This document shows positions 289-36,059 of a stretch of 39,394 nucleotides of DNA, piece after piece (position 1 is the first letter of the stretch; each line of letters starts with the position of its first letter). The stretch spans positions 1 to 39,394 of the forward strand of contig JANYBG010000096.1 in the NCBI GenBank assembly GCA_025360865.1, in the 5' to 3' direction. Both the position numbers and the translations under genes were made by a program. Below the pieces are notes generated by a model that searched no databases, was not told the DNA's origin, and saw only the letters and a list, made by a program, of their open reading frames with translations. Origin of the DNA: Pseudomonadota bacterium (lineage in GTDB: Bacteria; Pseudomonadota; Gammaproteobacteria; Steroidobacterales; Steroidobacteraceae).

Positions 289-1215
289 TCAACTGGCGCG
301 GTTGACGACAAAGTCGGCCAGCTGCGCCAAGGCCCCGGCCCGCGTCCCCAAGGGGGCGAGCGCGGCGATGGCCGCCTCGCGCAGCTCCTTGGCACGGCGC
401 TTGGCGGCGGGAAGGCCCGCGGTGCTCGGGTACGTCGGTTTCGCGTGCGCGGCATCCGCGCCCGTCGACTTGCCCAGGAGCGCCGGGTCCCCCTCGACAT
501 CCAGGATGTCGTCCTGAATCTGGAAGGCGAGACCCACCTGGGCGCCGAAGCTCTCTAGGCTCGCCAGCTGCGGGCCGCCGGTCACCCCGGCGGCGAGGGC
601 TCCCAGTAGGACGCTGCACTCGATCAGCGCGCCGGTCTTGCGCCGGTGCATGTCCTCGATGCCCGCGACATTGAGCACCTGGCCCACCGCGGCAAGATCG
701 ATCGCCTGCCCGCCGGCCATGCCACTGGTCCCGATCGCGCGCGCCAGCACGCGGATCATCTGCAGCCGTGCCTGCGGGGTGGTTCCCTCCATCGGCTCGT
801 TGGCGAGGACCTCGAACGCCAGCCCCTGCAGCGCATCTCCGACCAGCACCGCGGTGCCCTCGTCGTAGGCCTTGTGGCAGGTGGGGCGGCCGCGGCGCAG
901 GTCGTCGTCGTCCATCGCCGGCAGATCGTCGTGCACCAGACTGTAGACGTGGATCAGCTCAACCGCGGCGGCGGGGGCGTCGAGGCTGGCAAGCGGTGCT
1001 CCGAGAGATTCACCGGTGAGGTACACCAGCGTCGGGCGCAGCCGCTTACCCGCGCCAAGGACGCTGTAGCGCATGGCTGCGCGCAGTCTCGCGGTGCCTG
1101 GGTCCGGCAGCGCGAGCGCGCGGTCGAGTACGCCCTCGATGCGCGCCCGGCAGGCGGCCACCCGGGCGGCGAAAACGGTGAAAGGGCGGGGATCGCCCGC
1201 GGGCGGGGCGCTCAC
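289..1215 (-). CDS. ispA: Farnesyl diphosphate synthase (short-chain polyprenyl synthase)
   Basis: The protein has 308 residues, close to the usual size for IspA. It makes farnesyl diphosphate from isopentenyl and dimethylallyl/geranyl diphosphate, feeding undecaprenyl and quinone side-chain synthesis. The first aspartate-rich motif is HDDLPAMDDDDLRRGRPT (D96, D97, D102), the second is FQIQDDILD near residue 235, and GAGKRLRP near residue 55 binds diphosphate. The start ATG overlaps the xseB stop in an ATGA junction, so translation is probably coupled. Upstream xseB and downstream dxs on the same strand suggest one operon. A geranyl or geranylgeranyl chain length cannot be excluded from sequence alone, but the context favours IspA. 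Confidence 0.95.
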   Translation of the reverse strand: MSAPPAGDPRPFTVFAARVAACRARIEGVLDRALALPDPGTARLRAAMRYSVLGAGKRLRPTLVYLTGESLGAPLASLDAPAAAVELIHVYSLVHDDLPAMDDDDLRRGRPTCHKAYDEGTAVLVGDALQGLAFEVLANEPMEGTTPQARLQMIRVLARAIGTSGMAGGQAIDLAAVGQVLNVAGIEDMHRRKTGALIECSVLLGALAAGVTGGPQLASLESFGAQVGLAFQIQDDILDVEGDPALLGKSTGADAAHAKPTYPSTAGLPAAKRRAKELREAAIAALAPLGTRAGALAQLADFVVNRAS

Positions 1216-1586
1216 TGCGGATCCGGGTTGCCCGCGGACCCTTCCTCATCGGCTTCGAAGGCTTGCGCCTGCGGCTCGCCCCCCCGCTTCAGCAGGATCT
1301 CGACCTTCTGCTGCGCGGCCTGCAGCGAGCGTTGGCAGTGCCGCGTCAGCGCGACGCCGCGCTCGAACAGCTTCAGCGCCTCATCCAGCGGCAGGTCCCC
1401 GCGCTCGAGCCGCTCGGTGAGCGTCTCAAGTTCAGTCAGGGCCTGTTCGAAGTCGGGAGCTTTGCTGCTACGGGCCAAGGGCGTGCGATCCAATTTTTCG
1501 GAAGCCGAGGAGACAGGGGCGCGCAACGTTACACAGCACCGCGTGTGAGGGTCAACGCGCGGTTGACGTCCCTTGGACTGCGGCAT
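1212..1586 (-). CDS. xseB: Exodeoxyribonuclease VII small subunit
   Basis: The conserved core runs from DFEQALTELETLTERLERGD through LPLDEALKLFERGVALTRHCQ, the typical XseB two-helix fold that binds the large nuclease subunit XseA. XseA is not in the window. The C-terminus is an acidic tail. The start is uncertain. The only ATG (at 1586) adds about 38 Arg-rich residues not expected in XseB, which is usually near 80 residues, and it lies inside the -10 region proposed for the divergent rubrerythrin gene. It does have an AGGA at close spacing. A TTG at 1493 would give a more usual 93-residue protein but lacks a good ribosome-binding site. The stop overlaps the ispA start. Confidence 0.88.
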   Translation of the reverse strand: MPQSKGRQPRVDPHTRCCVTLRAPVSSASEKLDRTPLARSSKAPDFEQALTELETLTERLERGDLPLDEALKLFERGVALTRHCQRSLQAAQQKVEILLKRGGEPQAQAFEADEEGSAGNPDPQ

Positions 1587-1591
1587 ACAGT
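1563..1591 (+). promoter_or_regulatory. Sigma70-like promoter of the rubrerythrin operon
   Basis: TTGACG (1563-1568) and TACAGT (1586-1591) are separated by exactly 17 bp, matching the -35 and -10 consensus at 5/6 and 4/6 positions. Transcription would start near 1598, about 35 bp before the rubrerythrin ATG. It is among the best promoter-like sequences in this G+C-rich window and lies directly upstream of the palindrome at 1606-1620. This is inference from sequence only. Confidence 0.55.
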
Positions 1592-1605
1592 CCTAAGCTC
1601 GATGG

Positions 1606-1620
1606 TTAGACCCAGTCTAA
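1606..1620. promoter_or_regulatory. Perfect 15-bp palindrome, candidate repressor operator
   Basis: TTAGAC-CCA-GTCTAA is a perfect 6-3-6 inverted repeat. It sits about 8 to 22 bp after the predicted transcription start and just before the GAGGAAC ribosome-binding site of the rubrerythrin gene. That position suits a repressor. The shape, with TTAGA half-sites around a 3-bp centre, loosely resembles the iron-control element bound by Irr, a Fur-family protein known mainly from alphaproteobacteria. Rrf2- or PerR-type regulators are alternatives. No regulator gene is adjacent, so the binding protein is unknown. Confidence 0.5.
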
Positions 1621-1632
1621 GTGAGGAACGAG

Positions 1633-2046
1633 ATGAATCTCAAAGGCAGCAAGACCGAGAAGAACCTTAAGGACGCATTCGCCGGCGAGTCGCAGGCGAA
1701 CCGTCGCTACCTGTATTTCGCGCAGAAGGCTGACGTTGAGGGATTCAACGACGTTTCCGCGGTGTTCCGCTCGACCGCCGAGGGCGAGACCGGGCATGCC
1801 CACGGCCACCTTGAGTACCTCGAGGCGGTAGGCGATCCGGCCACGGGCCTGCCGATCGGCGAGACCCACAACAATCTCAAGGCGGCGATCGCCGGCGAGA
1901 CGCACGAGTACTCGGACATGTACCCGGGCATGGCGAAGGCGGCGCGCGAGGAGGGTTTCGCGGAGATCGCCGACTGGTTCGAGACGCTGGCCAAGGCCGA
2001 GCGCTCGCATGCCAATCGCTTCCAGAAGGCCCTCGACGGACTCTGA
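1633..2046 (+). CDS. Rubrerythrin-family diiron protein lacking a rubredoxin domain
   Basis: The protein has 137 residues and is a four-helix ferritin-like domain. Visible diiron ligands are E19, E52xxH55, E89 (with E92 close by) and E123xxH126, the paired ExxH pattern of rubrerythrins. There is no C-terminal CxxC rubredoxin domain, so electrons must come from another protein. Rubrerythrins reduce hydrogen peroxide in the cytoplasm. The ATG at 1633 is preferred over an in-frame GTG at 1621 because GAGGAAC lies 5-6 bp before it. The next two genes on the strand are an Fe-S oxidoreductase and a DUF3501 protein, a grouping that recurs in proteobacteria and suggests a dedicated electron route. 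Peroxidase activity is inferred from the family, not shown here. Confidence 0.9.
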   Translation: MNLKGSKTEKNLKDAFAGESQANRRYLYFAQKADVEGFNDVSAVFRSTAEGETGHAHGHLEYLEAVGDPATGLPIGETHNNLKAAIAGETHEYSDMYPGMAKAAREEGFAEIADWFETLAKAERSHANRFQKALDGL

Positions 2047-2058
2047 GGATCCTGCGAT

Positions 2059-2089
2059 ACCGGCCGCGTGCGCACAGCCCGCGGCCGGT
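2059..2089 (+). terminator. Strong intercistronic hairpin between rubrerythrin and the Fe-S gene
   Basis: ACCGGCCGCG (2059-2068) and CGCGGCCGGT (2080-2089) pair perfectly over 10 bp around an 11-nt loop. The stem is followed by GCTCGTTTG, a poor T tract. It may act as a partial terminator or an RNA-stabilising stem, giving more rubrerythrin than downstream products. A full stop seems unlikely because the next gene starts only 25 bp later on the same strand and no promoter is evident between them. Confidence 0.5.
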
Positions 2090-2114
2090 GCTCGTTTGAA
2101 AGTCGCCAACTCCA

Positions 2115-3491
2115 ATGAGCACTACGCCTTCGGAACCTGGAGCCTCAGCGGCCGAGCGTGAGGGCAGCCTCGAGGCACCCACGCGGCATCCGCTCGAATG
2201 GCGCTCGGCGGCCTTCTACGACCCCGCGGCGCTCGACCAGGAACTCGAGCGGGTCTTCGACATCTGCCACGGCTGTCGTCGCTGCTTCAACCTGTGCAAC
2301 TCATTCCCAGTGCTGTTCGACGCGGTCGACGCGACCCAGGAGGGCGAGGTCGCAGGCGTCGACAAGAAGGCCTACTGGGAGGTCGTCGACAATTGCTACC
2401 TGTGCGACATGTGCTTCATGACGAAGTGCCCGTACGTGCCGCCCCATCCCTGGCATGTCGACTTTCCGCACCTGATGCTGCGGGCGAAGGCCGTGCGGAC
2501 CCGCGCCGAAGGCCTGAGCCTGCGCGAGAAGACGCTCGCGGCCACCGATACGGTCGGTTCGCTCGCCGGCATCCCGGTGATCAGCGAGATAGTGAACGCG
2601 GTGAACCATTCCGCCCCGGGGCGCGCGCTGCTCGAGAAGGTGCTGGGCGTCGACCGCGGCGCCCCACTGCCGGATTACCACGCGCGCACCGCGCGCAAGC
2701 GCCTCGCGCACCTGGCCACCACCGCCGACCCGGTGTCCGCCGAGGCCCGCGCCACCCCTGCAACCCGCGGGCGCGTCGCGCTCTTCACCACCTGCTACGG
2801 CAACCGCAACGAGCCGGGGCTGGATGAGGACCTCGTGGCGATCTTCGGGCACAACGGCATCGAGGTGGCTCTGCTGCCGCGCGAGCGTTGCTGTGGCATG
2901 CCGCGGCTTGAGCTCGGTGACCTTGAGGCCGTGGCGAGGCTCAAGGAGCACAACATCCCGCAGCTCGCCCAGGCGATCGAGTCCGGCTACGACGTAGTGG
3001 CGCCGATTCCCTCGTGCGTTCTCATGTTCAAGCAGGAGTTGCCGCTCATGTTTCCCGAGGATGCGCAGGTGCGCGCCGTCGCGGAGCACACCTTCGATCC
3101 CTTCGAGTACCTCATGCTGCGCCTCCAGGCGGGCTTGCTGCGCACCGACTTCAAGGCGCGCCTCGGGAAGGTCAGTTACCACGTGCCATGCCACCTGCGA
3201 GTGCAGAACCTGGGCCTCAAGACGCGCGACATGCTCAGGCTCGTGCCCGAGACGACCGTGGATGTCATCGAGCGCTGCTCGGGTCACAACGGCACGTACG
3301 GGGTGAAGAAGGAATTCCGCGCGGCGTCCATGAAGATCGGTCGCCCGGTCATGACGCGTGTCGAGAACGGCAAGGCGGACCACTACAGCAGCGATTGCCC
3401 GATGGCGGGGCACCAGATCGAGAGTGGGCTCACCGAGGCACGGGAGCCGGAACACCCGCTGCGACTGCTGCGCATGGCGTACGGAATCTGA
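2115..3491 (+). CDS. Fe-S/CCG-domain oxidoreductase (HdrD/GlpC-like)
   Basis: This 458-residue protein has two [4Fe-4S] ferredoxin-type motifs, C51xxC54xxC57xxxC61 and C94xxC97xxC100xxxxC105P. Two cysteine-rich CCG-type regions follow. The first has C227 and C259-C260-G; the second has C301, C359, C388 and C428, with CSG in place of CCG. This layout is shared with the heterodisulfide reductase HdrD and the GlpC subunit, but there is no flavin domain or membrane segment. It is probably a cytoplasmic electron carrier or reductase. Its position after a rubrerythrin without rubredoxin suggests it supplies electrons to that protein; this is inference. The stop overlaps the DUF3501 start (TGATG), implying coupled translation. 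The substrate and electron donor are unknown. Confidence 0.88.
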   Translation: MSTTPSEPGASAAEREGSLEAPTRHPLEWRSAAFYDPAALDQELERVFDICHGCRRCFNLCNSFPVLFDAVDATQEGEVAGVDKKAYWEVVDNCYLCDMCFMTKCPYVPPHPWHVDFPHLMLRAKAVRTRAEGLSLREKTLAATDTVGSLAGIPVISEIVNAVNHSAPGRALLEKVLGVDRGAPLPDYHARTARKRLAHLATTADPVSAEARATPATRGRVALFTTCYGNRNEPGLDEDLVAIFGHNGIEVALLPRERCCGMPRLELGDLEAVARLKEHNIPQLAQAIESGYDVVAPIPSCVLMFKQELPLMFPEDAQVRAVAEHTFDPFEYLMLRLQAGLLRTDFKARLGKVSYHVPCHLRVQNLGLKTRDMLRLVPETTVDVIERCSGHNGTYGVKKEFRAASMKIGRPVMTRVENGKADHYSSDCPMAGHQIESGLTEAREPEHPLRLLRMAYGI

Positions 3492-4072
3492 TGCCCAAGC
3501 TCGCGGTCGCCGATCTGATGCCGCTCGAGCAGTACGCGCGCGAGCGCGGCGCTTTCCGCGAACGCGTGCTCGCGCACAAGGTCGCGCGCCGCCTGGCCGT
3601 GGGCCCCCATGCCACATGGATCTTCGAGGACCGCCTCACGGTGCAGTATCAGGTGCAGGAGATGCTGCGCACCGAGCGCATCTTCGAACCCGAGGGAATC
3701 GCCGAGGAGCTCGGCGCCTACAACCCGCTCATTCCCGATGGCAGCAACTGGAAGGTCACGCTGCTCCTGGAGTACGACACAAACGCGCGTCCGGCGGCGC
3801 TCGCCAGCCTCAGGGGCGTCGAGGATCGCTGCTGGGTGCGGGTGCGGGGCCATGAGCGCGTGTTCGCGATCGCCGACGAGGACCTGCCGCGCGAGAACGC
3901 GGAGAAGACCGCCGCGGTGCACTTCCTGCGTTTCGAGCTCACGCCGGCGATGCGCGCGGCGCTGCATGCCGTCGCGGCGTTGGCCGTGGGCATCGACCAC
4001 GAGAATTACCGCCACCAGATCGACCCGGTGACGCAGGCGGTCCGCGACTCGCTGGCCGCTGATCTTAGCTAG
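3491..4072 (+). CDS. DUF3501 family protein
   Basis: The product has 193 residues, no signal peptide, no membrane segment and no cysteine motif, so it does not look like a metal-cluster carrier. I recognise it as DUF3501 from features such as PHATWIFEDRLTVQYQVQEM, the NPLIP stretch, and the C-terminal VGIDHENYRHQ segment. Members are typically encoded beside a rubrerythrin and an HdrD-like Fe-S protein, as here. No biochemical function is established to my knowledge. The one-base stop/start overlap with the upstream gene suggests fixed stoichiometry with the Fe-S protein, perhaps as a partner subunit. Confidence 0.82.
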   Translation: MPKLAVADLMPLEQYARERGAFRERVLAHKVARRLAVGPHATWIFEDRLTVQYQVQEMLRTERIFEPEGIAEELGAYNPLIPDGSNWKVTLLLEYDTNARPAALASLRGVEDRCWVRVRGHERVFAIADEDLPRENAEKTAAVHFLRFELTPAMRAALHAVAALAVGIDHENYRHQIDPVTQAVRDSLAADLS

Positions 4073-4175: not shown

Positions 4176-6068
4176 ATGACCCAGTCCTACACCGCTTCCG
4201 ACATCGAGGTCCTGAGCGGCCTCGAGCCAGTCCGGCGCCGCCCCGGCATGTACACCCACACCTCGCGCCCGAACCACCTGGCGCACGAGGTCATCGACAA
4301 CAGCGTCGATGAGGCGCTCGCCGGCTACTGCAAGCAGATCGACGTCACCCTGTTCAAGGATGGCTCGTTGCAGGTCGCCGACGACGGCCGCGGCATGCCA
4401 GTGGACATCCATCCCAAGGAGAAGGTGAGCGGCGCGGAGCTGATCCTCACGCGCCTGCACGCCGGCGGCAAATTCTCCGATGCCACGTACAAGTTCTCCG
4501 GCGGCTTGCACGGCGTGGGCGTCTCGGTGGTGAACGCGCTCTCCAAGCACCTGGAGTGCTGGATCCGGCGGGGCGGCAAGGAATATAACATCGCCTTCAA
4601 GGACGGCGCGATCACCTCCAAGCTCGAGGAGATAGGGACCGTCGGCCAGCGTAACACCGGCAGCACGGTGCGCTTCTGGCCGGACGCCAAGTTCTTCGAT
4701 TCCGACAAGTTCTCTGTCCCGCCGCTCAAGCATGTCCTGAAGGCCAAGGCCGTCCTGTGCCCCGGTTTGCGCGTCACGTTCAAGAACGAGGCGACCGGCG
4801 AGAAGGACGAGTGGTTCTTCACCGGTGATCTGGGCGCCTATCTCATTGAGGAACTGCAGAAAGAGACACGTATCCCGGCCGAGCCGATCACTGGCGCGCT
4901 AACCGAGGACAATGACTCGGTCGACTACGCCTTGTGCTGGGCGCCGGATGCGGAAACGGCCCTCGGGGAAAGCTACGTCAACCTCATCCCCACCATCGAG
5001 GGCGGCACGCACGTCAATGGCTTGCGCGCCGGCGTCGCCGCGGCGGTGCGCGAGTTCTGCGAGTTCCGCAACCTCGTGCCGCGCGGGCTGAAGCTCACCC
5101 CCGAGGACGTGTGGGACAAGGCCAACTACGTGCTCTCGATCAAGATCCAGGAGCCGCAGTTCGCCGGGCAGATGAAGGAGCGCCTCGGTTCGCGTGAGGC
5201 GGCGCCCTTGGTCGAGGGCTTCGCGCGCGATTCGGTGGCGCTGTGGCTGAACCGCCATCCCGATGCCGGCGAGCGCATCGCGCAGTTCGCGATCCAGAAC
5301 GCCCAGGAGCGCGCGAAAGCCGCCCAGAAGATCGTGCGCAAGCGCATCGCCGGCGGCCCCGCTCTGCCGGGCAAGCTCGCCGACTGCGTGAGCCAGGAAC
5401 CGCGCCGCTGCGAGCTGTTCCTCGTCGAGGGCGACTCCGCCGGCGGCTCCGCCAAGCAGGCGCGCGACAAGGACTTCCAGGCGATCATGCCGCTGCGCGG
5501 CAAGATCCTGAATACCTGGGAACTGGACGCCCACCAGATCGCCGGTAGCGAGGAGGTGCACAACATCAGCATCGCGATGGGTATCGACCCGGGCTCGGCG
5601 GACCTGAGCCAGCTGCGTTACCACAAGATCTGCATCCTCGCGGACGCGGACTCGGACGGGCAGCACATCGCGACCCTGCTGTGCGCGCTGTTCCTGCGCC
5701 ACTTCCGCCCGCTGGTGGCCAACGGCCACGTGTATGTCGCCATGCCGCCGTTGTACCGGATCGATGCGGGCAAGCAGGTGCATTACGCGCTCGATGACGG
5801 CGAGCGCGACCAGTTCCTGAAGAAGATCGAGAAGGAGAACGCGCGCACCCGGCCAATGGTGACCCGCTTCAAGGGCTTAGGGGAGATGAACCCCTCGCAG
5901 TTGCGTGAGACCACGATCGACCCTCGCACGCGGCGCCTGGTGCAGCTGACCATCGAGGGCAAGGACAACACGGACCAGTTGATGGACATGCTGCTCGCCA
6001 AGAAACGCTCGGCTGACCGGCGCGAATGGCTTGAACAGAAGGGCAACCTCGCTGAAGTGCAGGTCTAG
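4176..6068 (+). CDS. parE: DNA topoisomerase IV subunit B
   Basis: The 630-residue length matches ParE rather than the longer proteobacterial GyrB, which carries an insert. The GHKL ATPase part shows [17 protein letters not shown] and [13 protein letters not shown]. The TOPRIM part shows [21 protein letters not shown] and DADSDGQHI, the acidic metal site. With ParC it decatenates daughter chromosomes. parC follows only 2 bp later, so the two are one transcription unit. The ATG lacks a clear ribosome-binding site; the conserved N-terminus ([20 protein letters not shown]) supports it. The 103 bp upstream hold no gene and only a weak TAAGAT element at 4118-4123. Confidence 0.96.
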
Positions 6069-21670: not shown

Positions 21671-24600
21671 ATGTTCGCCAAACGTTCAAGCCGGGCGCTG
21701 GCTCTGCTGCTGGCCCTGCCGTCAGCTGCGTTTGCCTTGGGTCTCGGAGATATCCATCTCCTTTCGCCCCTCAACGCCCCTCTGGATGCGGAAATCGAGC
21801 TCGTCGATGTCGCCCCGGACGAGGTGAATACCGTCCAGGTGCAGCTGGCATCGCGCGACACGTTCGCCAAGTACGGCCTGGACTGGCCGGCCTACCTGGC
21901 TGGCGTGCAGCTGAAGACACAGCGCACCGCGGACGGCCGCCAGGTCATCAAGCTCAAGTCGACCGACGCGATCTCCGAGCCCTTCGTCACGCTCCTGATC
22001 GAAGTCAACTGGGCGCGTGGTCGCCTGGTTCGCGAATACACGATGCTGCTGGACCCGCCGGTGTACGCGCCGGGCCACTCGGCCGTCGCCAGCGCCCCGC
22101 TGGCGGCTCCTGCCACCGCGACCCCCGGCGCGCGCGAGGGTTCGATCGCACGCGCCACCGAGGCTCCCCTGCCGCAGGCCGCCCCGGTCCCGCCGCAAGC
22201 CACGGCCGAACAGCCCGCGGCAGCGGAGACTGCTCCCACGGCGGCCCCAGCGCATCACGCGCGCGCGGCGCCCGCGGCCAGCGCCGAGCCGGTGGCTTCG
22301 GAGGAGTCAGGCGGTTCGCACACCGTGCAGCACGGCGAGACGCTGTCGGCCATCGCTGCAGGCGTCGCTGGCGCCAAGCTCAACTCCGCCCATGCGCGCA
22401 GCTGGATGGTGGCGATCTACAACGCGAACCCGGAAGCCTTCCGCAAGAACATGAACGTTATGCGCTCAGGCGCGGTGCTGCGCATCCCCGAGGCTTCCGA
22501 GGCGGCCGCGGTCTCCCCGGGCGAGGCCTCCGCGGAGATCCATCGTCAGTACACCGCCTGGCGCGGCGCCGCCGGCCAGAGCATCCCGGCCCCGGCTGAA
22601 CAGTCCGGACACTTGAAGCTCGTCACCCCCTCAGGGCCGGCTGCGGCCAATGCGACGCCGGCCGCCCCGCCCGCGCCCTCGGCCAAGGAGGCCGCGGCGG
22701 TCGCGGCCGCCACCGCCGCTGCGGCGACGGCTGCCAAGGACGCCGAAGCCAGGCGCCTGCTGGAGCTGAAGAACGAAGAACTCGCGCGCATGCAGGCGCA
22801 GAACGCCGCCAAGCAGGCCCCGACCGCGCCGGCCCCCGTGCCGGCTCCTGCCCCCGAGGCGACCCCGCCGGCCGCCGCGGCCCCCGCCGCGACTGAGCCG
22901 GCGCCGGCCCCCGCCGCGGAACAGGCGCCCCCGGAAGTGCAGGCGGCCCCGCCGGCACCCGTCCAGAAGCCCAAGCCCGTTACCCCGGTCGCGGTGCCCG
23001 CGGGCGGGTCGTTCCTGGACACCCTGCTCAGTTACTGGTGGATCCTGGCCATCCTCGCGCTGGGCCTGCTGGGCTTATTCGCCCTGCGGCTGGTGCGCTC
23101 CAAGCGCGCCACGACGGAACTGGACGACTCGCTCGGCCGCATGGCCGCGGCCGGCGCCGATGCCGCGGAGATGGGTTCGATGTCCGCCTCGCGGGGATTC
23201 TCGGAGCCGGAGCCAGTTCCAGTTCCGGTTCCAGTTCCAGTCCGCACCACGCGCACCTCCCCGGTGGCGGTGCCCGATTCGTTCCTCGTCGAGGAGACCG
23301 GATCGCACGAGCGCCCGCGGCTGGGCACGACCGGCACGATGCCCGCCATGGCCGCCCCGAAGCACGTGGCGAGCGATGAGACGATCAGCAGCGAGACCGC
23401 GATCAACCTTGACCAGGGCGATCCGCTGGCCGAGGCCGACTTCCACATGGCCTACGGCCTTTACGACCAGGCGGCCGACCTCATCCGCATCGCCATCAGC
23501 CGCGAGCCCACCCGTCGCGACCTGAAGTTGAAGCTCCTCGAGGTCTTCTTCGTCTGGGGCAACAAGGATCAGTTCCTCGCCAGCGCGCGTGAGCTTGCGC
23601 AGAGCCGCGCGGATGCCGCGCCCGGCGAGTGGGAAAAGATCCTCATCATGGGCAAGCAGCTCGCCCCCGAGGACCCGCTGTTCAGCGGCGGCGGCGCCAT
23701 CAGTGGCGCCTCCGCGGGCGGCGTCGACCTGGATCTCGAGGGCGGTCAGAGCCGCGTCGACTTCGACCTGATCGGCGATGAGCCAATGCCGACCGAAGTG
23801 AGCCGCGGGGTCGATCTGGACATCGGTTCAGCCGTTGGTGACCTCGACTCCACGGCCGAGTCGCAGTCCAACATCACCGACCAAAACGCGGCCCTTCTTG
23901 ATGGCAACTTCCTCGACGGTGGCACGACCCGCCAGATGACCGGGCGCATGCGTCAGAAGAGCGGCGGCTCGACCGCCGAGATGGAAGGCCCGACCGTGGA
24001 GCAGCCCACGCTCAATCCCCAGGACAACCCGACCATCCGCCAGAAGCTCGAGAGCGCGATGCGCCAGGGCGGCACAGAGCACACCGCCGAACTCGCGATC
24101 GATGATCTCGGTCTAGACGTCGGCCAGATCGACACCATCGACCAGCCGGGGATCACCTCGGCCGCGGCCTCCACTCCGGATGCGCCGACGCTGGTCGCGG
24201 GTCTTGATGACCATTCGCGCCGTGTCATGGAGGACGCTCACCGCCGCGCCGGCGCGCCGGAGACCGGAACGAGCACGGGCGCCTGGCAGTTCGACCAGGA
24301 CGAGCTCGAGGCGGCCCTGACGCAGAGCAGCCAGATGCTCCCGGACGCCTCAGCCACCTCGCGTATGCGCGCGTTGAGCGGGCATGACCTCGACGTTGAC
24401 GTCGGGGACGCCACCGGCCGCCACATGACCCGCGGCGGCGACGTGGACCTGGATGTTGGCGCGGCCACGGGCACGCACGAGAGCCACGGCGGCACGCTGG
24501 ATCTGGATGTCGGCACAGCGACCGTGCCGGATGCGGCCTTCGCGGCCACGCAACGACTGTCCTCGGATGATCTGGCGCTGCCTGATCTTGAGCCAGTGAC

Positions 24601-24757
24601 CATGAGTGAGGTCGGCACCAAACTCGACCTCGCCCGCGCGTATATGGACATGGGTGATCCGGATGGCGCCCGCAACATCCTCGAGGAAGTTCTGAGCGAG
24701 GGGTCGGCCGCGCAGAAGCAGGAAGCCCAGCGTCTGATCGAATCGCTCCCGGGCTGA
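21671..24757 (+). CDS. fimV: FimV/HubP family pole-organising protein
   Basis: The 1028-residue protein has a signal peptide, the FimV N-terminal block (LGLGDIHLLSPLNAPLDAEI), and a LysM peptidoglycan-binding domain near 215-275. A long Ala/Pro-rich stretch follows, then one membrane helix (about 450-475), an acidic cytoplasmic region with repeated DLDVG-like units, and the conserved C-terminal TPR-like domain (about 984-1028, LARAYMDMGDPDGARNILEE). FimV/HubP proteins organise the cell pole and support type IV pilus secretin assembly and twitching. The asd-fimV-truA order is conserved in gammaproteobacteria. GGGGTG lies 5 bp before the ATG. A FimX-like protein is encoded elsewhere in the window, fitting a piliated cell. 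Confidence 0.93.
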   Translation: MFAKRSSRALALLLALPSAAFALGLGDIHLLSPLNAPLDAEIELVDVAPDEVNTVQVQLASRDTFAKYGLDWPAYLAGVQLKTQRTADGRQVIKLKSTDAISEPFVTLLIEVNWARGRLVREYTMLLDPPVYAPGHSAVASAPLAAPATATPGAREGSIARATEAPLPQAAPVPPQATAEQPAAAETAPTAAPAHHARAAPAASAEPVASEESGGSHTVQHGETLSAIAAGVAGAKLNSAHARSWMVAIYNANPEAFRKNMNVMRSGAVLRIPEASEAAAVSPGEASAEIHRQYTAWRGAAGQSIPAPAEQSGHLKLVTPSGPAAANATPAAPPAPSAKEAAAVAAATAAAATAAKDAEARRLLELKNEELARMQAQNAAKQAPTAPAPVPAPAPEATPPAAAAPAATEPAPAPAAEQAPPEVQAAPPAPVQKPKPVTPVAVPAGGSFLDTLLSYWWILAILALGLLGLFALRLVRSKRATTELDDSLGRMAAAGADAAEMGSMSASRGFSEPEPVPVPVPVPVRTTRTSPVAVPDSFLVEETGSHERPRLGTTGTMPAMAAPKHVASDETISSETAINLDQGDPLAEADFHMAYGLYDQAADLIRIAISREPTRRDLKLKLLEVFFVWGNKDQFLASARELAQSRADAAPGEWEKILIMGKQLAPEDPLFSGGGAISGASAGGVDLDLEGGQSRVDFDLIGDEPMPTEVSRGVDLDIGSAVGDLDSTAESQSNITDQNAALLDGNFLDGGTTRQMTGRMRQKSGGSTAEMEGPTVEQPTLNPQDNPTIRQKLESAMRQGGTEHTAELAIDDLGLDVGQIDTIDQPGITSAAASTPDAPTLVAGLDDHSRRVMEDAHRRAGAPETGTSTGAWQFDQDELEAALTQSSQMLPDASATSRMRALSGHDLDVDVGDATGRHMTRGGDVDLDVGAATGTHESHGGTLDLDVGTATVPDAAFAATQRLSSDDLALPDLEPVTMSEVGTKLDLARAYMDMGDPDGARNILEEVLSEGSAAQKQEAQRLIESLPG
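23203..23244 (+). repeat. Imperfect hexamer tandem repeat inside fimV (Glu/Val-Pro run)
   Basis: About seven 6-bp units (GGAGCC, GGAGCC, AGTTCC, AGTTCC, GGTTCC, AGTTCC, AGTCCG) encode EPEPVPVPVPVPVR near residues 511-524, just inside the membrane helix. Gain or loss of a unit would stay in frame and change linker length by two residues. Confidence 0.75.
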
Positions 24758-30662: not shown

Positions 30663-31886
30663 CTGGCGGAGCATCCCGATCCCAGACGCGCGCTGCTGCT
30701 CGGCCTGCTGCGCGCTGGGCTGCGCGAGGTGGACGGCCGCCGCTGCGTAACCCACGCGCTGCGCAACTCACCCGCTCCGGGGCAGGCGCCGGTCTGGATC
30801 GCCGCGGTTGGCAAAGCCGCCTTCGCGATGGCCCAGGGTGCCCACGACGCGCTTGGTTCGGCCATCGCGCACACACTGGTCATCACGCGGGACCCGCAGT
30901 CGCAGGCGCCACTGCCGCGCGGGGCGCCGCTCGAGGTGCTTTACGGCGGACATCCGCTGCCAGATGAGCGTTCGCTGCACGCGGGGGCGCGCTTGCTGGC
31001 CTGGGTCGATGCCCTGCCGGAGCACGCCCAGCCGCTGTTCCTGATCTCCGGCGGCGCCTCGAGCCTGGTCGAGGTACTGGTGCCCGGGGTGACCCTCGCG
31101 GACCTTGCGGAGCTGAATCGCTCGGCGCTCGCCCAGGGCATCGCCATCGGGGAATTCAACGCCCGGCGCACCGGTGTTTCGCGCATCAAGGGCGGGCAAC
31201 TCCCGGGCCGCCTTAACGGCCGGCGCGCGCGCGCCCTGTTTATCTCCGATGTCCCCGGCGATGACCCCGCCGTCATCGGATCGGGAATCATGGGGCCGAC
31301 CCCGGGCGGCCCTGATGGCGTCCAGCGCGAGGTCATCGCCTCGGTCGACGCCGCGGTGGCGTGCGTCGCCACGCGGGCCCGCGAGCTAGGACTCACAGTG
31401 CATGCGCCAGTGCGGCGCTTCGATGACAGCGCCGCCCGTCTGGCGGCGCGCTTCGCGCACGAGCTGAGCCTTACGCCCGCTCAGCTGTGCGTGTGGGGCG
31501 GGGAGTCCACCATCGCGTTGCCCGAGCGTCCCGGGCGTGGTGGCCGCAACCAGCACCTCGCGCTGGCCGTCGCCCGGCTCATCGCCGGCCACGCGGATCT
31601 CATGTTGCTCGCCGCGGGCACCGATGGCAGTGACGGGGTCACTGAGGATGCGGGCGGCCTTGTCGATGCGGAGAGCTGCTCGCGTCTTTCGCTCGCGCTG
31701 CTCGATGCGGACAAGTGCCTGCGCGAGGCCAACTCGGCGGTGGCGCTGGCCGCCAGTGGCGATCTTGTGCATACCGGCCCAACGGGCACCAACGTCGGGG
31801 ACCTGGTGATCGGACTTAAGCTCTCCGTCGCCGCCGCGCGCTCCCTGCCGCCGCTTCATGGCGGTGAGCGCGCTCGCGTGCTGTAA
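30663..31886 (+). CDS. Glycerate 2-kinase-like protein (DUF4147/MOFRL), probable CTG start
   Basis: The product resembles the GckA-type glycerate 2-kinases: N-terminal Rossmann part with IAAVGKAAFAMAQGA, SGGASSLVEV and SDVPGDDPAVIGSG, and the C-terminal MOFRL part with GGEST, GRGGRNQHLALA, AAGTDGSDGVTEDAGG and PTGTNVGDL. It would phosphorylate glycerate at C2 in glyoxylate or serine metabolism. The only standard start, GTG at 30729, would discard the family's N-terminal helix (RRALLLGLLRAGLREVDGRR). That helix is encoded just upstream in the same frame, which has no ATG, GTG or TTG but has CTG at 30663, 5 bp after GGGAG and 1 bp after the purF stop. I annotate from CTG (407 residues); a sequencing error is the alternative. 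Confidence 0.82.
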   Translation: MAEHPDPRRALLLGLLRAGLREVDGRRCVTHALRNSPAPGQAPVWIAAVGKAAFAMAQGAHDALGSAIAHTLVITRDPQSQAPLPRGAPLEVLYGGHPLPDERSLHAGARLLAWVDALPEHAQPLFLISGGASSLVEVLVPGVTLADLAELNRSALAQGIAIGEFNARRTGVSRIKGGQLPGRLNGRRARALFISDVPGDDPAVIGSGIMGPTPGGPDGVQREVIASVDAAVACVATRARELGLTVHAPVRRFDDSAARLAARFAHELSLTPAQLCVWGGESTIALPERPGRGGRNQHLALAVARLIAGHADLMLLAAGTDGSDGVTEDAGGLVDAESCSRLSLALLDADKCLREANSAVALAASGDLVHTGPTGTNVGDLVIGLKLSVAAARSLPPLHGGERARVL

Positions 31887-31893
31887 TCCTCCC

Positions 31894-33147
31894 ATGCGCG
31901 TGCTGTTGATCGAGGAGGACGCGCGCCAGTGCGCGCACATTCGCAGGCGGCTTGTCGCCTGGCGGCCGCACGCGCAGCTCGTCGTCCACAGCCCGGTCGC
32001 GCAGGGTGCGCTCGCCCCGGAGTTCCTGGCGCAGGGATTCGATGCGGTGCTGGTGGCGGCCGAGTGGCCCGGTGGCCACGGCATCACCTGGCTGGGGGAA
32101 CTCGCCGGGCGGCGTGGCTTCGCCCCGCTGGTGCTGCTGTGCGGCACGGACCCTTCCGCCGCGCGCGACGCCGCGGCGCTGGGGGCTTACAGCGTCAATC
32201 TCCAGGACCTCGAGCGCGAGGATTTCATCCGCGTGCTCACCGCCGCCGAGCAGCGCCAGGCGCATGCCCGCGCCTTGTGGCGTACGAGCGCCCCGGGTCG
32301 GGAGACCCAGCGCTTCGGCGATGCCTTCGTGCGTGATTACCGCTGCATCCGCAAGATCGCCAATGGCGCGACGACTGATTTGTACCTCGCCGAGAGCGAG
32401 CGCGCCGGCAGCCTCGTGGTGCTGAAGGTCGCGCGCGACCGGCGCGACGAGAACAACCAGCCAATCGACGCGTTCCGGCGCTTCCTGCAGGAATATGAGA
32501 TCGCCCAGCGAATCCAGACGCCCGCAGTGGTGCGCCTGCACGATCTGGGGGTCAGTGACGAGCACGCGTGGCTCGTGATGGAATACTTTCCCCGCGGCGA
32601 TCTGCGCAAGCGCATGCGCCAGCCGGTGACCCCGCGTCAGGCGCTGCTTTTGGCCGCGTCCATCGCGCGCGCCTTGACCGCCGTGCATGCCGCAGGCGTG
32701 CTGCACCGGGATCTCAAGCCCGGAAACATCATGCTGCGTGAGGACCACAGTGTCGCGCTCATCGACTTCGGCCTCTCGAAAGACGCGGCTCTGGCGATGG
32801 ACATCACCGACACCGGGACGATCTTCGGCACCCCGCACTACATGAGCCCGGAGCAGGGCCATGCGGAGCCGATCGACGAGCGCAGCGACCTTTACAGCCT
32901 GGGAGTGATCCTTTTCGAGATGCTCGCTGGCCATAAGCCGTACCGGGCCGAGAACCCGATGGCGATCGTCTATAAGCACCGCAAGGAGCCCATCCCACGG
33001 CTGCCGCGCGCCTTCACCGCCGTGCAGCCGTTGCTGGAGCGCCTGCTCGCCAAGACCCCCAAGGAGCGCTTCGCGAGCGCGCACGAGGCCGCGCAGGCCC
33101 TCGAGCGCACGCTCGAGCGTTGGCAAGCGCGCGCGGCGAACGGATGA
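31894..33147 (+). CDS. Ser/Thr protein kinase with degenerate N-terminal receiver domain
   Basis: Of 417 residues, about 1-125 look like a response-regulator receiver (MRVLLIEEDA, then FDAVLVAAEWPGGHGI) and 145-410 are a Hanks-type kinase. The receiver has Ala at the phospho-acceptor position (A55) and lacks the conserved Lys, so it should not be phosphorylated. The kinase keeps K178, HRDLKPGN (271-278), DFG (291-293) and SPE, but its glycine loop is IANGATTDLY, with only one of the usual glycines. No membrane segment is seen, so it is cytosolic. An alternative in-frame ATG at 31858 overlaps the upstream gene. Its stop overlaps miaE (ATGA). Substrates and the input signal are unknown. Confidence 0.87.
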   Translation: MRVLLIEEDARQCAHIRRRLVAWRPHAQLVVHSPVAQGALAPEFLAQGFDAVLVAAEWPGGHGITWLGELAGRRGFAPLVLLCGTDPSAARDAAALGAYSVNLQDLEREDFIRVLTAAEQRQAHARALWRTSAPGRETQRFGDAFVRDYRCIRKIANGATTDLYLAESERAGSLVVLKVARDRRDENNQPIDAFRRFLQEYEIAQRIQTPAVVRLHDLGVSDEHAWLVMEYFPRGDLRKRMRQPVTPRQALLLAASIARALTAVHAAGVLHRDLKPGNIMLREDHSVALIDFGLSKDAALAMDITDTGTIFGTPHYMSPEQGHAEPIDERSDLYSLGVILFEMLAGHKPYRAENPMAIVYKHRKEPIPRLPRAFTAVQPLLERLLAKTPKERFASAHEAAQALERTLERWQARAANG

Positions 33148-33893: not shown

Positions 33894-34616
33894 ATGATGA
33901 CGGACCGACCACACCTTCTGATCGTCGACGACGACCGCGAGATCCGCGGACTGCTGGCCCAATATCTCGAGAAGCATGACTTCCGCACGACCGCTGTCGC
34001 TGATGGCAAGGAGATGCGGCGCATGCTCGAGCGCTCGCACGTCGACCTCGTGGTACTTGACCTGATGCTGCCGGGTGAGGACGGGCTGTCACTGTGTCGC
34101 GAGCTGCGTAGCCGCTCGCAGATTCCGGTCATCATGCTCACCGCGCGCGGCGAGGACGTCGACCGCATCATCGGCCTTGAGATCGGCGCCGATGACTATG
34201 TGGCGAAGCCGTTCAATCCACGGGAGCTGCTCGGGCGCATCAAGGCGATCCTGCGCCGCTCAGCGCACGCGCCCCGCGATCCCAGTCCCGCGAGCGTGCG
34301 CGGCTTCACGTTCAATGGCTGGCGGCTGGACACTGTGACGCGCGCGCTCAAGGATGCCGCAGGCAAAGAAGTGGCCCTGAGCGGCGCCGAGTACCGATTG
34401 CTGGCCGTGCTCCTGGGCGCCAACAACCGCGTCCTCACGCGCGCGCAGCTCACCGAGCTCTTACGCGGTCGCGACGCGGATCCCTTCGACCGCAGCATCG
34501 ACGTGCGCGTCAGTCGTTTGCGGCAGATCCTGGGCGATGATGCGCGCGTGCCGCAGATCATCAAGACCGTCTATGGCGAGGGTTACGTGGTGGGCGTCCT
34601 CGTCGTGACCGACTGA
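33894..34616 (+). CDS. OmpR-family response regulator
   Basis: The 240-residue protein has a receiver with the acidic pair D12/D13, phospho-acceptor D56 (VVLDLMLPGEDG), T83 and K105 (YVAKPFNPREL), followed by a winged-helix output domain (ALSGAEYRLLAVLL, then RSIDVRVSRLRQILGDD and VYGEGYVV). It is the cognate partner of the histidine kinase 18 bp downstream. The ATG at 33894 is immediately followed by a second ATG; either may be used. A single GCTAACGG lies at 33845-33852 upstream, the same word found twice before the small periplasmic gene after the kinase, which suggests autoregulation. Confidence 0.93.
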   Translation: MMTDRPHLLIVDDDREIRGLLAQYLEKHDFRTTAVADGKEMRRMLERSHVDLVVLDLMLPGEDGLSLCRELRSRSQIPVIMLTARGEDVDRIIGLEIGADDYVAKPFNPRELLGRIKAILRRSAHAPRDPSPASVRGFTFNGWRLDTVTRALKDAAGKEVALSGAEYRLLAVLLGANNRVLTRAQLTELLRGRDADPFDRSIDVRVSRLRQILGDDARVPQIIKTVYGEGYVVGVLVVTD

Positions 34617-34634
34617 CCGCGGTTCGGATTTTCG

Positions 34635-36059
34635 ATGCGCATCAGCCTCTGGCCCGAGTCGCTGTTCGGCCGACTGCTGGCCGCCTCGGTGGTCGCCGTG
34701 CTGATTGCCCAGGCCGCGGCGCTGTTCCTCATCGCGCAGGATCGAGAGCGCTTCGCGCTGCAGGCGAGCGTGCACGAGTGGACCCATCGCATCAGCGAGA
34801 CGACCCTGATGCTCCAGCCGCTGGGGCTGGCGGAGCGCGCCGAGGCCGTCTCGGAACTGTCGGCGGTGGCCGCGCGCGGCCGCCGACCACACCTGGTGGG
34901 CATGCCCCCGGACGGACCCGAGCACGGGCCGCCGCCGGATCGTGGCTTCCTGCGCCTGCCGCTGCTGGCGGACTTCGAGCAGGCTCTGCGCGAGCACCTG
35001 CGCTCCGCGCTCGGATCTGAGTTCGGCATAGGGGTCGCACCGACCCCGCTCTCGGCGCCGGCGGCCATTCAGCTGCCGGTGCCGTTCTACGAGGCGCACG
35101 AGCTGGCGACGCACGAGGGCAGCGCGCGGCGCTACGACGTCACGGTGCGTTTCCCTGATGGCGGCACGGTGCTCTACCGGGTCACACGCATGCCAGGTGG
35201 CGCGCCGCTGCCGCGTAACCTGTTTCTGAACCTCGCATTGCTGGTCCTGATCCTGGTCATCGTGCTCTACCTGACCGCGCGGACCATCACCCGTCCGCTC
35301 TCGGACCTGGCGCGCGCCGCCGACAACATCGGTCGCGACTCCGGGCGCACGCAGCTAGAGGAGCGCGGCGCGCGTGAGCTGCGCGATGCCGCGCACGCCT
35401 TCAACACAATGCAGGACCGACTGCATCGCTACCTGGACAGCCGCTCGCGGGTGCTCGCGGCGATGTCACACGATCTCAAATCACCCCTGACCCGGCTGCG
35501 CCTGCAGGTCGAGGCGCTCGACAATCCCGCGATGGAAGCGCGCATTGGGATCGAGCTCGACGAAATGGAGGCCATGGTGCACGAGGCGCTGTCGCTGTTC
35601 CGCGGGTTCGACGACGGGGCCCCGGCGACCTCGGTCGACATCGATGCGCTACTGGCGAGGATCCGCGCCGAATTCACCAACATGGGCCAGCGGGTAAGCG
35701 TCAGCGGGCACGCGCAGAGCCCCTTCACCGGCAAGCCTCAGTCGTTAAAGCGTTGCCTGACCAATCTGATCGTTAACGCGATCAAGTTCGGAACGCGTGC
35801 GGACGTGCTGGTCGAGGACGGGGCGCAGCTCATCATCCGCGTGCGCGACCAAGGCCCTGGCATCCCCGCGGAGGAGCTGGAGCGGGTGTTCGAGCCTTTC
35901 TATCGCCTGGAGTCCTCGCGCAACCGGGACAGCGGAGGTACCGGGCTCGGCCTCACGATCGCGCGCGACATAGCCCAGGCGCACGGTGGATCGCTCACGC
36001 TGCATAACCTCGTCACGGGTGGTCTTGAGGCCGTGCTCACGCTGCCCAGACGCCGGTAA
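34635..36059 (+). CDS. Membrane sensor histidine kinase (EnvZ/CpxA-like)
   Basis: The 474-residue protein has membrane helices at about 12-34 and 196-214 around a periplasmic sensor of roughly 160 residues. HAMP follows, then the HisKA box with H279 in LAAMSHDLKSPLTRLRL, and the ATPase N box (LTNLIVNAIKFG), G1 (RDQGPGIP) and G2 (GTGLGLTIA). The sensor contains a Pro/Gly/His-rich segment, VGMPPDGPEHGPPPDRG. The signal is unknown; the linked LTxxQ protein suggests envelope stress or metal. The gene order regulator-kinase-periplasmic LTxxQ protein recalls CpxR-CpxA-CpxP, but the sensor sequence does not allow a firm Cpx assignment. Confidence 0.92.
   Translation: MRISLWPESLFGRLLAASVVAVLIAQAAALFLIAQDRERFALQASVHEWTHRISETTLMLQPLGLAERAEAVSELSAVAARGRRPHLVGMPPDGPEHGPPPDRGFLRLPLLADFEQALREHLRSALGSEFGIGVAPTPLSAPAAIQLPVPFYEAHELATHEGSARRYDVTVRFPDGGTVLYRVTRMPGGAPLPRNLFLNLALLVLILVIVLYLTARTITRPLSDLARAADNIGRDSGRTQLEERGARELRDAAHAFNTMQDRLHRYLDSRSRVLAAMSHDLKSPLTRLRLQVEALDNPAMEARIGIELDEMEAMVHEALSLFRGFDDGAPATSVDIDALLARIRAEFTNMGQRVSVSGHAQSPFTGKPQSLKRCLTNLIVNAIKFGTRADVLVEDGAQLIIRVRDQGPGIPAEELERVFEPFYRLESSRNRDSGGTGLGLTIARDIAQAHGGSLTLHNLVTGGLEAVLTLPRRR

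What the first reader, a model, noticed from the sequence alone, without database searches (positions are those of the whole stretch)
1563..4072. Rubrerythrin / Fe-S CCG oxidoreductase / DUF3501 unit: a compact, poorly understood redox module
The sequence shows a rubrerythrin with no rubredoxin domain, then a protein with two [4Fe-4S] motifs and two CCG regions, then a cysteine-free DUF3501 protein whose start overlaps the Fe-S gene stop. Rubrerythrins need an electron donor, and the Fe-S protein is the obvious local candidate. DUF3501 has no established role that I know of. The gene trio is recurrent in proteobacteria, so the arrangement is known, but the pathway is not. I infer an oxygen-sensitive peroxide-reduction complex in which DUF3501 is a structural or donor-binding partner.
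Basis: partly seen in the sequence, partly recalled or inferred. Interest (0 to 1): 0.72.

Follow-up and report, generated by a model that had tools for sequence, protein, structure and literature searches.

The report
Peroxide-defence operon with its own switch
Three neighbouring bacterial genes form a known hydrogen-peroxide defence set whose third partner is still unexplained, and they sit behind a DNA switch that appears to belong to an Irr-type (iron/heme-sensing) repressor; in at least one relative the same slot holds a different peroxide-destroying enzyme.

Summary
The trio is real: rubrerythrin without rubredoxin (1633-2046), a Fe-S/CCG oxidoreductase (2115-3491) and DUF3501 (3491-4072, one-base overlap). 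Two details were wrong: the second "CCG" is CSG, and DUF3501 has a cysteine. The trio is published as the "aerobic-type rubrerythrin system" (PMC5114695), and a DUF3501 crystal structure exists (3FJV). As a gene set it is known.

New against the papers searched is its control. A palindrome, TTAGACCCAGTCTAA (1606-1620), lies just downstream of a sigma-70-like promoter. Similar boxes stand before 76 of 94 rbr genes. It is the genome's only such site (up to 1 mismatch). It tracks an Irr-like Fur-family protein: in 49 genomes 32 have both, 12 neither, 5 box only, 0 regulator only (two rescored). A few boxes lie elsewhere; three stand before katG. In one genome, and by inference a second, katG occupies the trio's slot (xseB-box-X-parE).

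Best reading: an Irr-repressed H2O2 reductase. RBR reduces peroxide, RFO (LutA/HdrB/EtfD-like fold) probably supplies electrons, DUF3501 is an accessory of unknown mechanism. Regulator binding, electron path and DUF3501's role are inferred.

The parts
1563..1568 (+). -35 box TTGACG
   Evidence: 9 of 12 consensus positions with the -10 box, 17-bp spacer; similar hexamers seen by eye, not counted, in many homologous promoters
1586..1591 (+). -10 box TACAGT
1606..1620 (+). operator TTAGACCCAGTCTAA (palindrome; Irr/ICE-like box), just downstream of the promoter, i.e. a repressor position
1633..2046 (+). aerobic-type rubrerythrin (RBR; sulerythrin/ferriperoxin type), di-iron ligands conserved, no rubredoxin domain
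2115..3491 (+). [quoted passage not shown]
3491..4072 (+). DUF3501 protein (PF12007), ATG overlaps RFO stop by one base; relative of solved structure 3FJV
1212..1586 (-). xseB (exodeoxyribonuclease VII small subunit), divergent neighbour that marks the chromosomal slot
289..1215 (-). ispA (farnesyl diphosphate synthase), flank of the slot
4176..6068 (+). parE, downstream flank of the slot

Best explanation
The locus is an aerobic-type rubrerythrin system: one transcription unit that makes a hydrogen-peroxide reductase (RBR), a Fe-S oxidoreductase that most likely feeds it electrons (RFO), and an accessory protein (DUF3501). It is switched by an Irr-like Fur-family repressor, encoded elsewhere in the genome (G000:C218:64-492), that sits on the palindrome at 1606-1620 just downstream of the promoter. 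By analogy with Irr of alphaproteobacteria, the repressor would hold the operon off when iron/heme is scarce and let go when heme binds or peroxide destroys it, so that an iron-rich peroxidase is made only when iron is available. Shown by computation: gene content, conserved metal ligands, operator conservation, operator uniqueness in the genome, regulator-operator co-occurrence, katG in place of the trio behind the same kind of box. Inferred: binding of the regulator, its signal, electron flow from an unknown donor through RFO to RBR, and DUF3501 as docking or assembly partner (least certain step).
For: Families. Operator: 76 of 94 rbr promoters within 3 mismatches of TTAGAMTNAKTCTAA against about 1.5 in single-base shuffles (two loci counted twice); only site in the own genome at up to 1 mismatch. 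In 40 genomes (own and 39 relatives) 30 exact places of TTAGAMYNAKTCTAA, 26 at rbr (20 by sequence, 6 by spacing) and 2 before katG. A one-mismatch site before a third katG-like gene, in G033. Regulator: the second Fur protein of the genome scores best with Irr models (IrrA 141.8 bits) and keeps an HXH motif (H97, H99 invariant in 15 of 15). Co-occurrence in 49 genomes as first scored: 30 both, 5 box only, 2 regulator only, 12 neither, p 4.7e-6. After finding that the 2 exceptions hold a second, boxed trio: 32/5/0/12, p 6.7e-8; on an RFO tree 6 independent pairs on supported branches, 5.7 the same way, 0 the other way, sign test median p 0.031. Among the 40 relatives-set genomes, 21 of the 27 with an exact box have the Irr-like gene, and the 6 without are at most 83% complete. 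Slot swap: in G036 katG lies between xseB and parE behind the box, and no RFO was found there. Published: ferriperoxin activity and knockout (PMC3317640), Irr control of rubrerythrin-like mbfA (PMC3413700).
Against: The regulator scores just under the curated Irr cut-offs (141.8 against 150). Five of 49 genomes have the box but no Irr-like gene; three of them (G046, G053, G062) show no clear Fur hit either, two do. The absence calls are weak the other way too: two of the 12 'neither' genomes (G057, G086) also show no Fur-family hit at all. With the regulator as the leading trait, the tree test gives 7 pairs, 5.1 the same way, 1.9 without change, median p 0.0625. Some genomes have the Irr-like gene and no trio and no clear target (G005, G028). 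I saw no regulator gene beside the operon in the window, and no box within 2 mismatches near the irr-like genes of the window's genus. The own genome also has a katG without the box, so the trio is not its only peroxide scavenger. Ferriperoxin works with FNR in vitro, so RFO may not be needed as donor; Thermoproteales are reported to have RBR-DUF3501 without RFO (PMC5114695).
Confidence: 0.72

Rival explanations
1. Same peroxidase operon, but the operator belongs to a different regulator (another Fur-family protein, or an unrelated repressor) that happens to be kept in the same genomes as the Irr-like gene.
For: 5 of 49 genomes have a box without an Irr-like gene, and 6 of 27 boxed genomes of the relatives set; a DUF3501 operon in Sideroxydans clusters with oxyR (PMC7852563, passages); no direct binding data.
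Against: 10 of the 12 box-less genomes still have a lower-scoring Fur-family hit (41-62 bits), so ordinary Fur alone does not track the box. On supported branches no change of box goes against the Irr-like gene. The box also marks katG in a genome that has the Irr-like gene but no trio (G036).
Confidence: 0.15
2. RBR receives electrons from a general reductase (FNR/ferredoxin), and RFO plus DUF3501 serve another task, such as maturing or repairing the di-iron site or the Fe-S clusters, or delivering iron.
For: Ferriperoxin is reduced by NADPH and FNR in vitro (PMC3317640). In the genomes of L101 and L107 an RBR-DUF3501 pair lies apart from RFO, although those genomes hold a full trio as well.
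Confidence: 0.25
3. RFO is a GlpC-type subunit of glycerol-3-phosphate dehydrogenase and the cluster is metabolic, not peroxide defence.
For: Best NCBIfam hit is GlpC (NF008369, 240 bits).
Against: Score is under the curated cut-off of 278; the neighbours identified are xseB, ispA, parE and parC; the kind of box and the slot are shared with katG.
Confidence: 0.03

Closest known systems
Aerobic-type rubrerythrin system RBR-RFO-DUF3501 (Cardenas et al. 2016, PMC5114695)
   Same: All three genes, the families, the co-localisation, no rubredoxin domain; their survey of 4461 genomes found the triple in 185
   Different: The main text, of which I read parts 1-4 of 5, names no operator or regulator for it; here an Irr-type box and regulator are proposed
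Ferriperoxin of Hydrogenobacter thermophilus / sulerythrin of Sulfolobus
   Same: Single-domain rubrerythrin, di-iron ligands conserved; peroxidase shown for ferriperoxin (PMC3317640), fast reaction with H2O2 for sulerythrin (PMC12851003, passages)
   Different: In H. thermophilus RFO is encoded apart (PMC5114695) and FNR served as reductase in vitro
Irr / ICE box of alphaproteobacteria, e.g. Rhodobacter sphaeroides mbfA and ccpA (PMC3413700, passages)
   Same: Fur-family repressor with HXH motif, box at the start of a rubrerythrin-like or peroxidase gene
   Different: MbfA has a membrane-spanning VIT1-like part (PMC7762939, passages); that review places Irr, with few exceptions, in alphaproteobacteria, while the genomes here are mostly gamma- and betaproteobacterial by record title; in the window's genus at most one exact box per genome was found
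LutA / HdrB / EtfD CCG-type Fe-S proteins
   Different: Second CCG motif reduced to CSG/CAG; no membrane part is evident in the RFO model, unlike EtfD (the latter from general knowledge)
3FJV, DUF3501 protein of Burkholderia pseudomallei (structural genomics, released 2009)
   Different: Deposited as a novel protein of unknown function; a search of the paper library for '3FJV' gave one unrelated paper

Membership tests
Aerobic-type rubrerythrin system (RBR-RFO-DUF3501) | Rubrerythrin without rubredoxin-like domain | tested here: met
   Pfam Rubrerythrin and weak Ferritin only, 137 aa, no Cys; closest solved chains are single-domain rubrerythrins and sulerythrin
Aerobic-type rubrerythrin system (RBR-RFO-DUF3501) | DUF3501 (pfam12007) co-localised | tested here: met
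   PF12007 5.7e-65, 1.4 kb downstream of rbr
Aerobic-type rubrerythrin system (RBR-RFO-DUF3501) | COG0247-type RFO related to GlpC | tested here: met
   Two [4Fe-4S] motifs, CCG domain, GlpC as best NCBIfam hit under its cut-off
Sulerythrin/ferriperoxin-type peroxidase | Di-iron carboxylate/histidine ligands | tested here: met
   E19, E52, H55, E89, E92, E123, H126 kept in at least 92 of 93 aligned sequences; their assignment as ligands is by analogy with sulerythrin (recalled)
Sulerythrin/ferriperoxin-type peroxidase | H2O2 reductase activity | not testable with these tools
   Needs an assay
GlpC (anaerobic glycerol-3-phosphate dehydrogenase subunit C) | NCBIfam equivalog cut-off | tested here: not met
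   240.2 against 278 (NF008369) and 159.7 against 279.9 (TIGR03379)
HdrB/LutA-type CCG proteins | CCG-domain fold | tested here: met
HdrB/LutA-type CCG proteins | Two complete CCG motifs (definition recalled) | tested here: not met
   Second motif is CSG in 84 and CAG in 9 of 93
Irr (iron response regulator) | NCBIfam equivalog cut-off | tested here: not met
   IrrA 141.8 against 150, Irr 133.8 against 170; still the best-scoring models, PerR models 27-81
Irr (iron response regulator) | HXH heme-binding motif | tested here: met
   H97 and H99 invariant in 15 of 15 orthologues; motif definition from PMC7762939
Irr (iron response regulator) | Binds ICE boxes at target promoters | tested here: inconclusive
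   Box-regulator co-occurrence; the published ICE consensus could not be read here, its likeness to TTTAGAA-N3-TTCTAAA is recalled
Irr (iron response regulator) | Heme- or iron-dependent loss of repression | not testable with these tools
   Needs expression or binding assays

The most novel reading that the evidence does not exclude
Gamma- and betaproteobacteria carry an Irr-type regulator that is, in the window's genus, a dedicated single-target switch for peroxide removal: one box per genome, placed before the rubrerythrin trio or, in some lineages of the order, before katG put into the same chromosomal slot. It would be a heme/peroxide-sensing counterpart of PerR, with an exchangeable enzyme behind it; DUF3501 decays once RBR and RFO are replaced, so it works only with them.
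Probability: 0.5. Interest if true: 0.68.

Novelty: new variant of a known kind. Interest (0 to 1): 0.52.

Why it matters
The RBR-RFO-DUF3501 set occurs across aerobic bacteria, archaea and, in several protists, with predicted mitochondrial location (PMC5114695, PMC7050145), yet the role of two of its three proteins is open. A shared operator and a natural swap with katG give a functional reading (peroxide removal) that does not rest on annotation of the trio. The box-regulator pair can be tested by one gel shift and one deletion. It would also extend Irr control, described almost only in alphaproteobacteria, to other proteobacteria.

Tried and rejected

Weaker or contrary results: G005 and G028 have an Irr-like gene but no DUF3501 or RFO. 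Two of their one-mismatch boxes were looked at (L179, L184) and lie near ORFs without Pfam hits, so their Irr targets are unknown. G026 has two extra exact boxes, one upstream of hfq, and no Irr-like hit. Six of 27 genomes with an exact box in the relatives set have no full Irr-like hit: G004, G007, G008 (a fragment only), G015, G019, G026; all are 65-83% complete. At one mismatch the reversed control pattern hits as often as the real one in AT-rich genomes such as G036 and G029, so I weighed one-mismatch sites only where palindromic and placed before a gene; that choice was made by eye. The shuffles keep single bases only, not dinucleotides.

Rows dropped before counts, and choices: the 80 loci are the best of 579 confirmed relatives, and 20 of the 34 genomes with DUF3501 were taken. 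One search scored 49 of the 50 (L111 has no rbr start). One search used those 49, 12 of the 20 relative loci, G029 and the window. The 8 left out (L033, L034, L036, L038-L040, L043, L045) are near neighbours of the same genus; two of them, L036 (G008) and L043 (G004), have the box but no full Irr hit. L101 and L107 were rescored from 'regulator only' to 'both' after a second trio with box was found in their genomes; both tables are given. In one search two pairs of the 94 promoters are the same locus fetched twice (L034/L049, L045/L060). The tree is a quick one.
Full report
1. Observation. The window holds ispA and xseB on the minus strand (289-1215, 1212-1586), then on the plus strand rubrerythrin (ATG 1633, stop to 2046), a Fe-S oxidoreductase (2115-3491) and DUF3501 (3491-4072), then parE and parC. 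The rubrerythrin has no rubredoxin domain and no cysteine. The Fe-S protein has two four-cysteine motifs and one CCG domain; its second CCG is CSG or CAG in 93 of 93 aligned homologues. DUF3501 has one cysteine (C114), so "cysteine-free" is wrong for this copy. The ATG of DUF3501 overlaps the TGA of the Fe-S gene by one base.

2. It is a known set. Searches of the paper library for DUF3501 and for rubrerythrin with Fe-S oxidoreductase lead to Cardenas et al. 2016 (PMC5114695; I read parts 1-4 of 5 of its text). They call it the aerobic-type rubrerythrin lineage, name the Fe-S protein RFO, report the triple in 185 genomes in a survey of 4461, and fused DUF3501-RFO in Nitrosomonas. It also occurs, with predicted mitochondrial location, in some protists (PMC7050145, passages). 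The single-domain rubrerythrin of Hydrogenobacter is an FNR-dependent peroxidase needed for aerobic growth (PMC3317640, abstract and passages). In Sulfolobus solfataricus the rbr cluster, with a downstream gene annotated glpC, is up-regulated by H2O2 (PMC2739297, passages).

3. Co-occurrence here. A profile of 17 DUF3501 proteins brought the best 80 of 579 confirmed relatives from named genomes; 20 more loci came from relatives of the window's genome. RBR is found in 96 and RFO in 97 of these 100. Of the four without RBR, three are cut by the contig end; one (L111, Thiorhodococcus) is a real exception within the fetched flank. The three without RFO in the locus (L081, L101, L107) have an RFO elsewhere, and L101 and L107 have a second, complete trio. 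The sample is of close kin; the wide survey is that of Cardenas et al.

4. An operator. Upstream of rbr lies TTGACG-N17-TACAGT (1563-1591) and then TTAGACCCAGTCTAA (1606-1620). A box of the form TTAGAMTNAKTCTAA is present within 3 mismatches in 76 of 94 rbr promoters, against about 1.5 in single-base shuffles. In the own genome the window's site is the only place matching TTAGAMYNAKTCTAA with up to one mismatch. In 40 genomes (own and 39 relatives) there are 30 exact places (35 strand hits) in 27 genomes: 26 before rbr (20 shown by sequence, 6 by their distance to DUF3501), 2 before katG, 2 others in G026. The reversed control pattern gives 5 strand hits.

5. A regulator. The own genome has two Fur-family proteins. 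One is Fur (NF006999, 198.5 bits, over its cut-off of 146). The other scores best with Irr models (IrrA 141.8 bits, cut-off 150), above PerR models (27-81), and keeps the HXH motif named for Irr in PMC7762939. Irr profile hits across 50 genomes fall into two clear groups, 139 bits and more, or 62 and less. In the 49 of them with a readable rbr promoter: box and regulator 30, box only 5, regulator only 2, neither 12 (p 4.7e-6). The two 'regulator only' genomes are those of L101 and L107, whose second trio has a perfect box; with that the table is 32, 5, 0, 12 (p 6.7e-8). On a quick RFO tree of 63 rows, six independent pairs on supported branches differ in the box, and in 5.7 of 6 on average the regulator goes the same way, never the other way (median sign-test p 0.031). 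Taken from the regulator's side there are 7 pairs, 5.1 the same way and 1.9 without change (median p 0.0625). This is modest, but suggests more than shared descent. Absence calls are weak where a genome is incomplete: three of the five 'box only' and two of the twelve 'neither' genomes show no clear Fur hit at all. In the relatives set, 21 of 27 genomes with an exact box have the Irr-like gene; the six without are 65-83% complete.

6. The katG swap. In G036 (Irr-like gene present; no DUF3501 or RFO found) a perfect box lies 25 bases before the ATG of katG, and katG lies between xseB and parE, that is, in the trio's slot. In G033 a box with one mismatch lies beside xseB before a katG-like gene that runs to the contig end. 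Another contig begins with the end of a katG, followed by a DUF3501 piece lacking about its first 70 residues, then parE. I read these as the two sides of one locus but did not join them. No RFO was found in G033; a rubrerythrin elsewhere in G033 was not looked for. G030 has a boxed trio and a boxed katG at separate places. So the box goes with peroxide-removing enzymes, and in this one case DUF3501 seems to decay without RFO.

8. Model. In iron-poor cells the Irr-like protein sits over the start of transcription. With heme or peroxide it leaves. RBR then reduces H2O2 with its di-iron site, RFO refills it with electrons, and DUF3501 helps dock or assemble the pair. Confidence: trio identity 0.98; peroxide removal 0.88; Irr-like protein as owner of the box 0.8; RFO as donor 0.6; DUF3501 as docking partner 0.35.

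9. Not in print? The regulator-trio link was not seen in the listings (48 and 102 show only the top 25 of 105 and 10 of 26 papers), nor in the passages read. Two papers I would expect to bear on it, the Irr regulon reconstruction (doi 10.1371/journal.pcbi.0020163) and the ICE paper (PMC1347296), are not held, so a mention there cannot be excluded. PMC3413700 (passages) shows Irr binding at mbfA, a rubrerythrin-like gene of another kind, and at ccpA, a cytochrome c peroxidase; the pairing of Irr with peroxide defence is thus known in alphaproteobacteria.

Noticed in passing
L101 with L196, L107 with L195: These two genomes hold two rubrerythrin-DUF3501 copies: a boxed full trio before parE, and an unboxed RBR-DUF3501 pair that has no RFO beside it. 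This looks like a paralogous system with different control.
   Followed up: partly
L190:276-641: DUF3501 piece lacking its first ~70 residues between a katG end and parE in G033; looks like a relic of a replaced trio.
   Followed up: partly
L111 / L197 (Thiorhodococcus mannitoliphagus): RFO and DUF3501 side by side with no rubrerythrin in the fetched flank, no box within 2 mismatches and no Irr-like hit; the clearest exception to the trio.
   Followed up: no
L164:1629-1643 (G026): An exact operator-like box about 105 bases upstream of an hfq gene.
   Followed up: no
L085, L110, L119: Record titles name Bordetella parapertussis for three MAGs that sit at separate places among betaproteobacterial rows of the RFO tree; the labels look doubtful.
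   Followed up: no
window 31858-33147: Serine/threonine protein kinase (Pfam Pkinase 3e-46) followed by a two-component pair at 33894-36059.
   Followed up: no
window 21671-24757: FimV-like protein of 1028 aa (Pfam FimV_N 5.5e-38).
   Followed up: no
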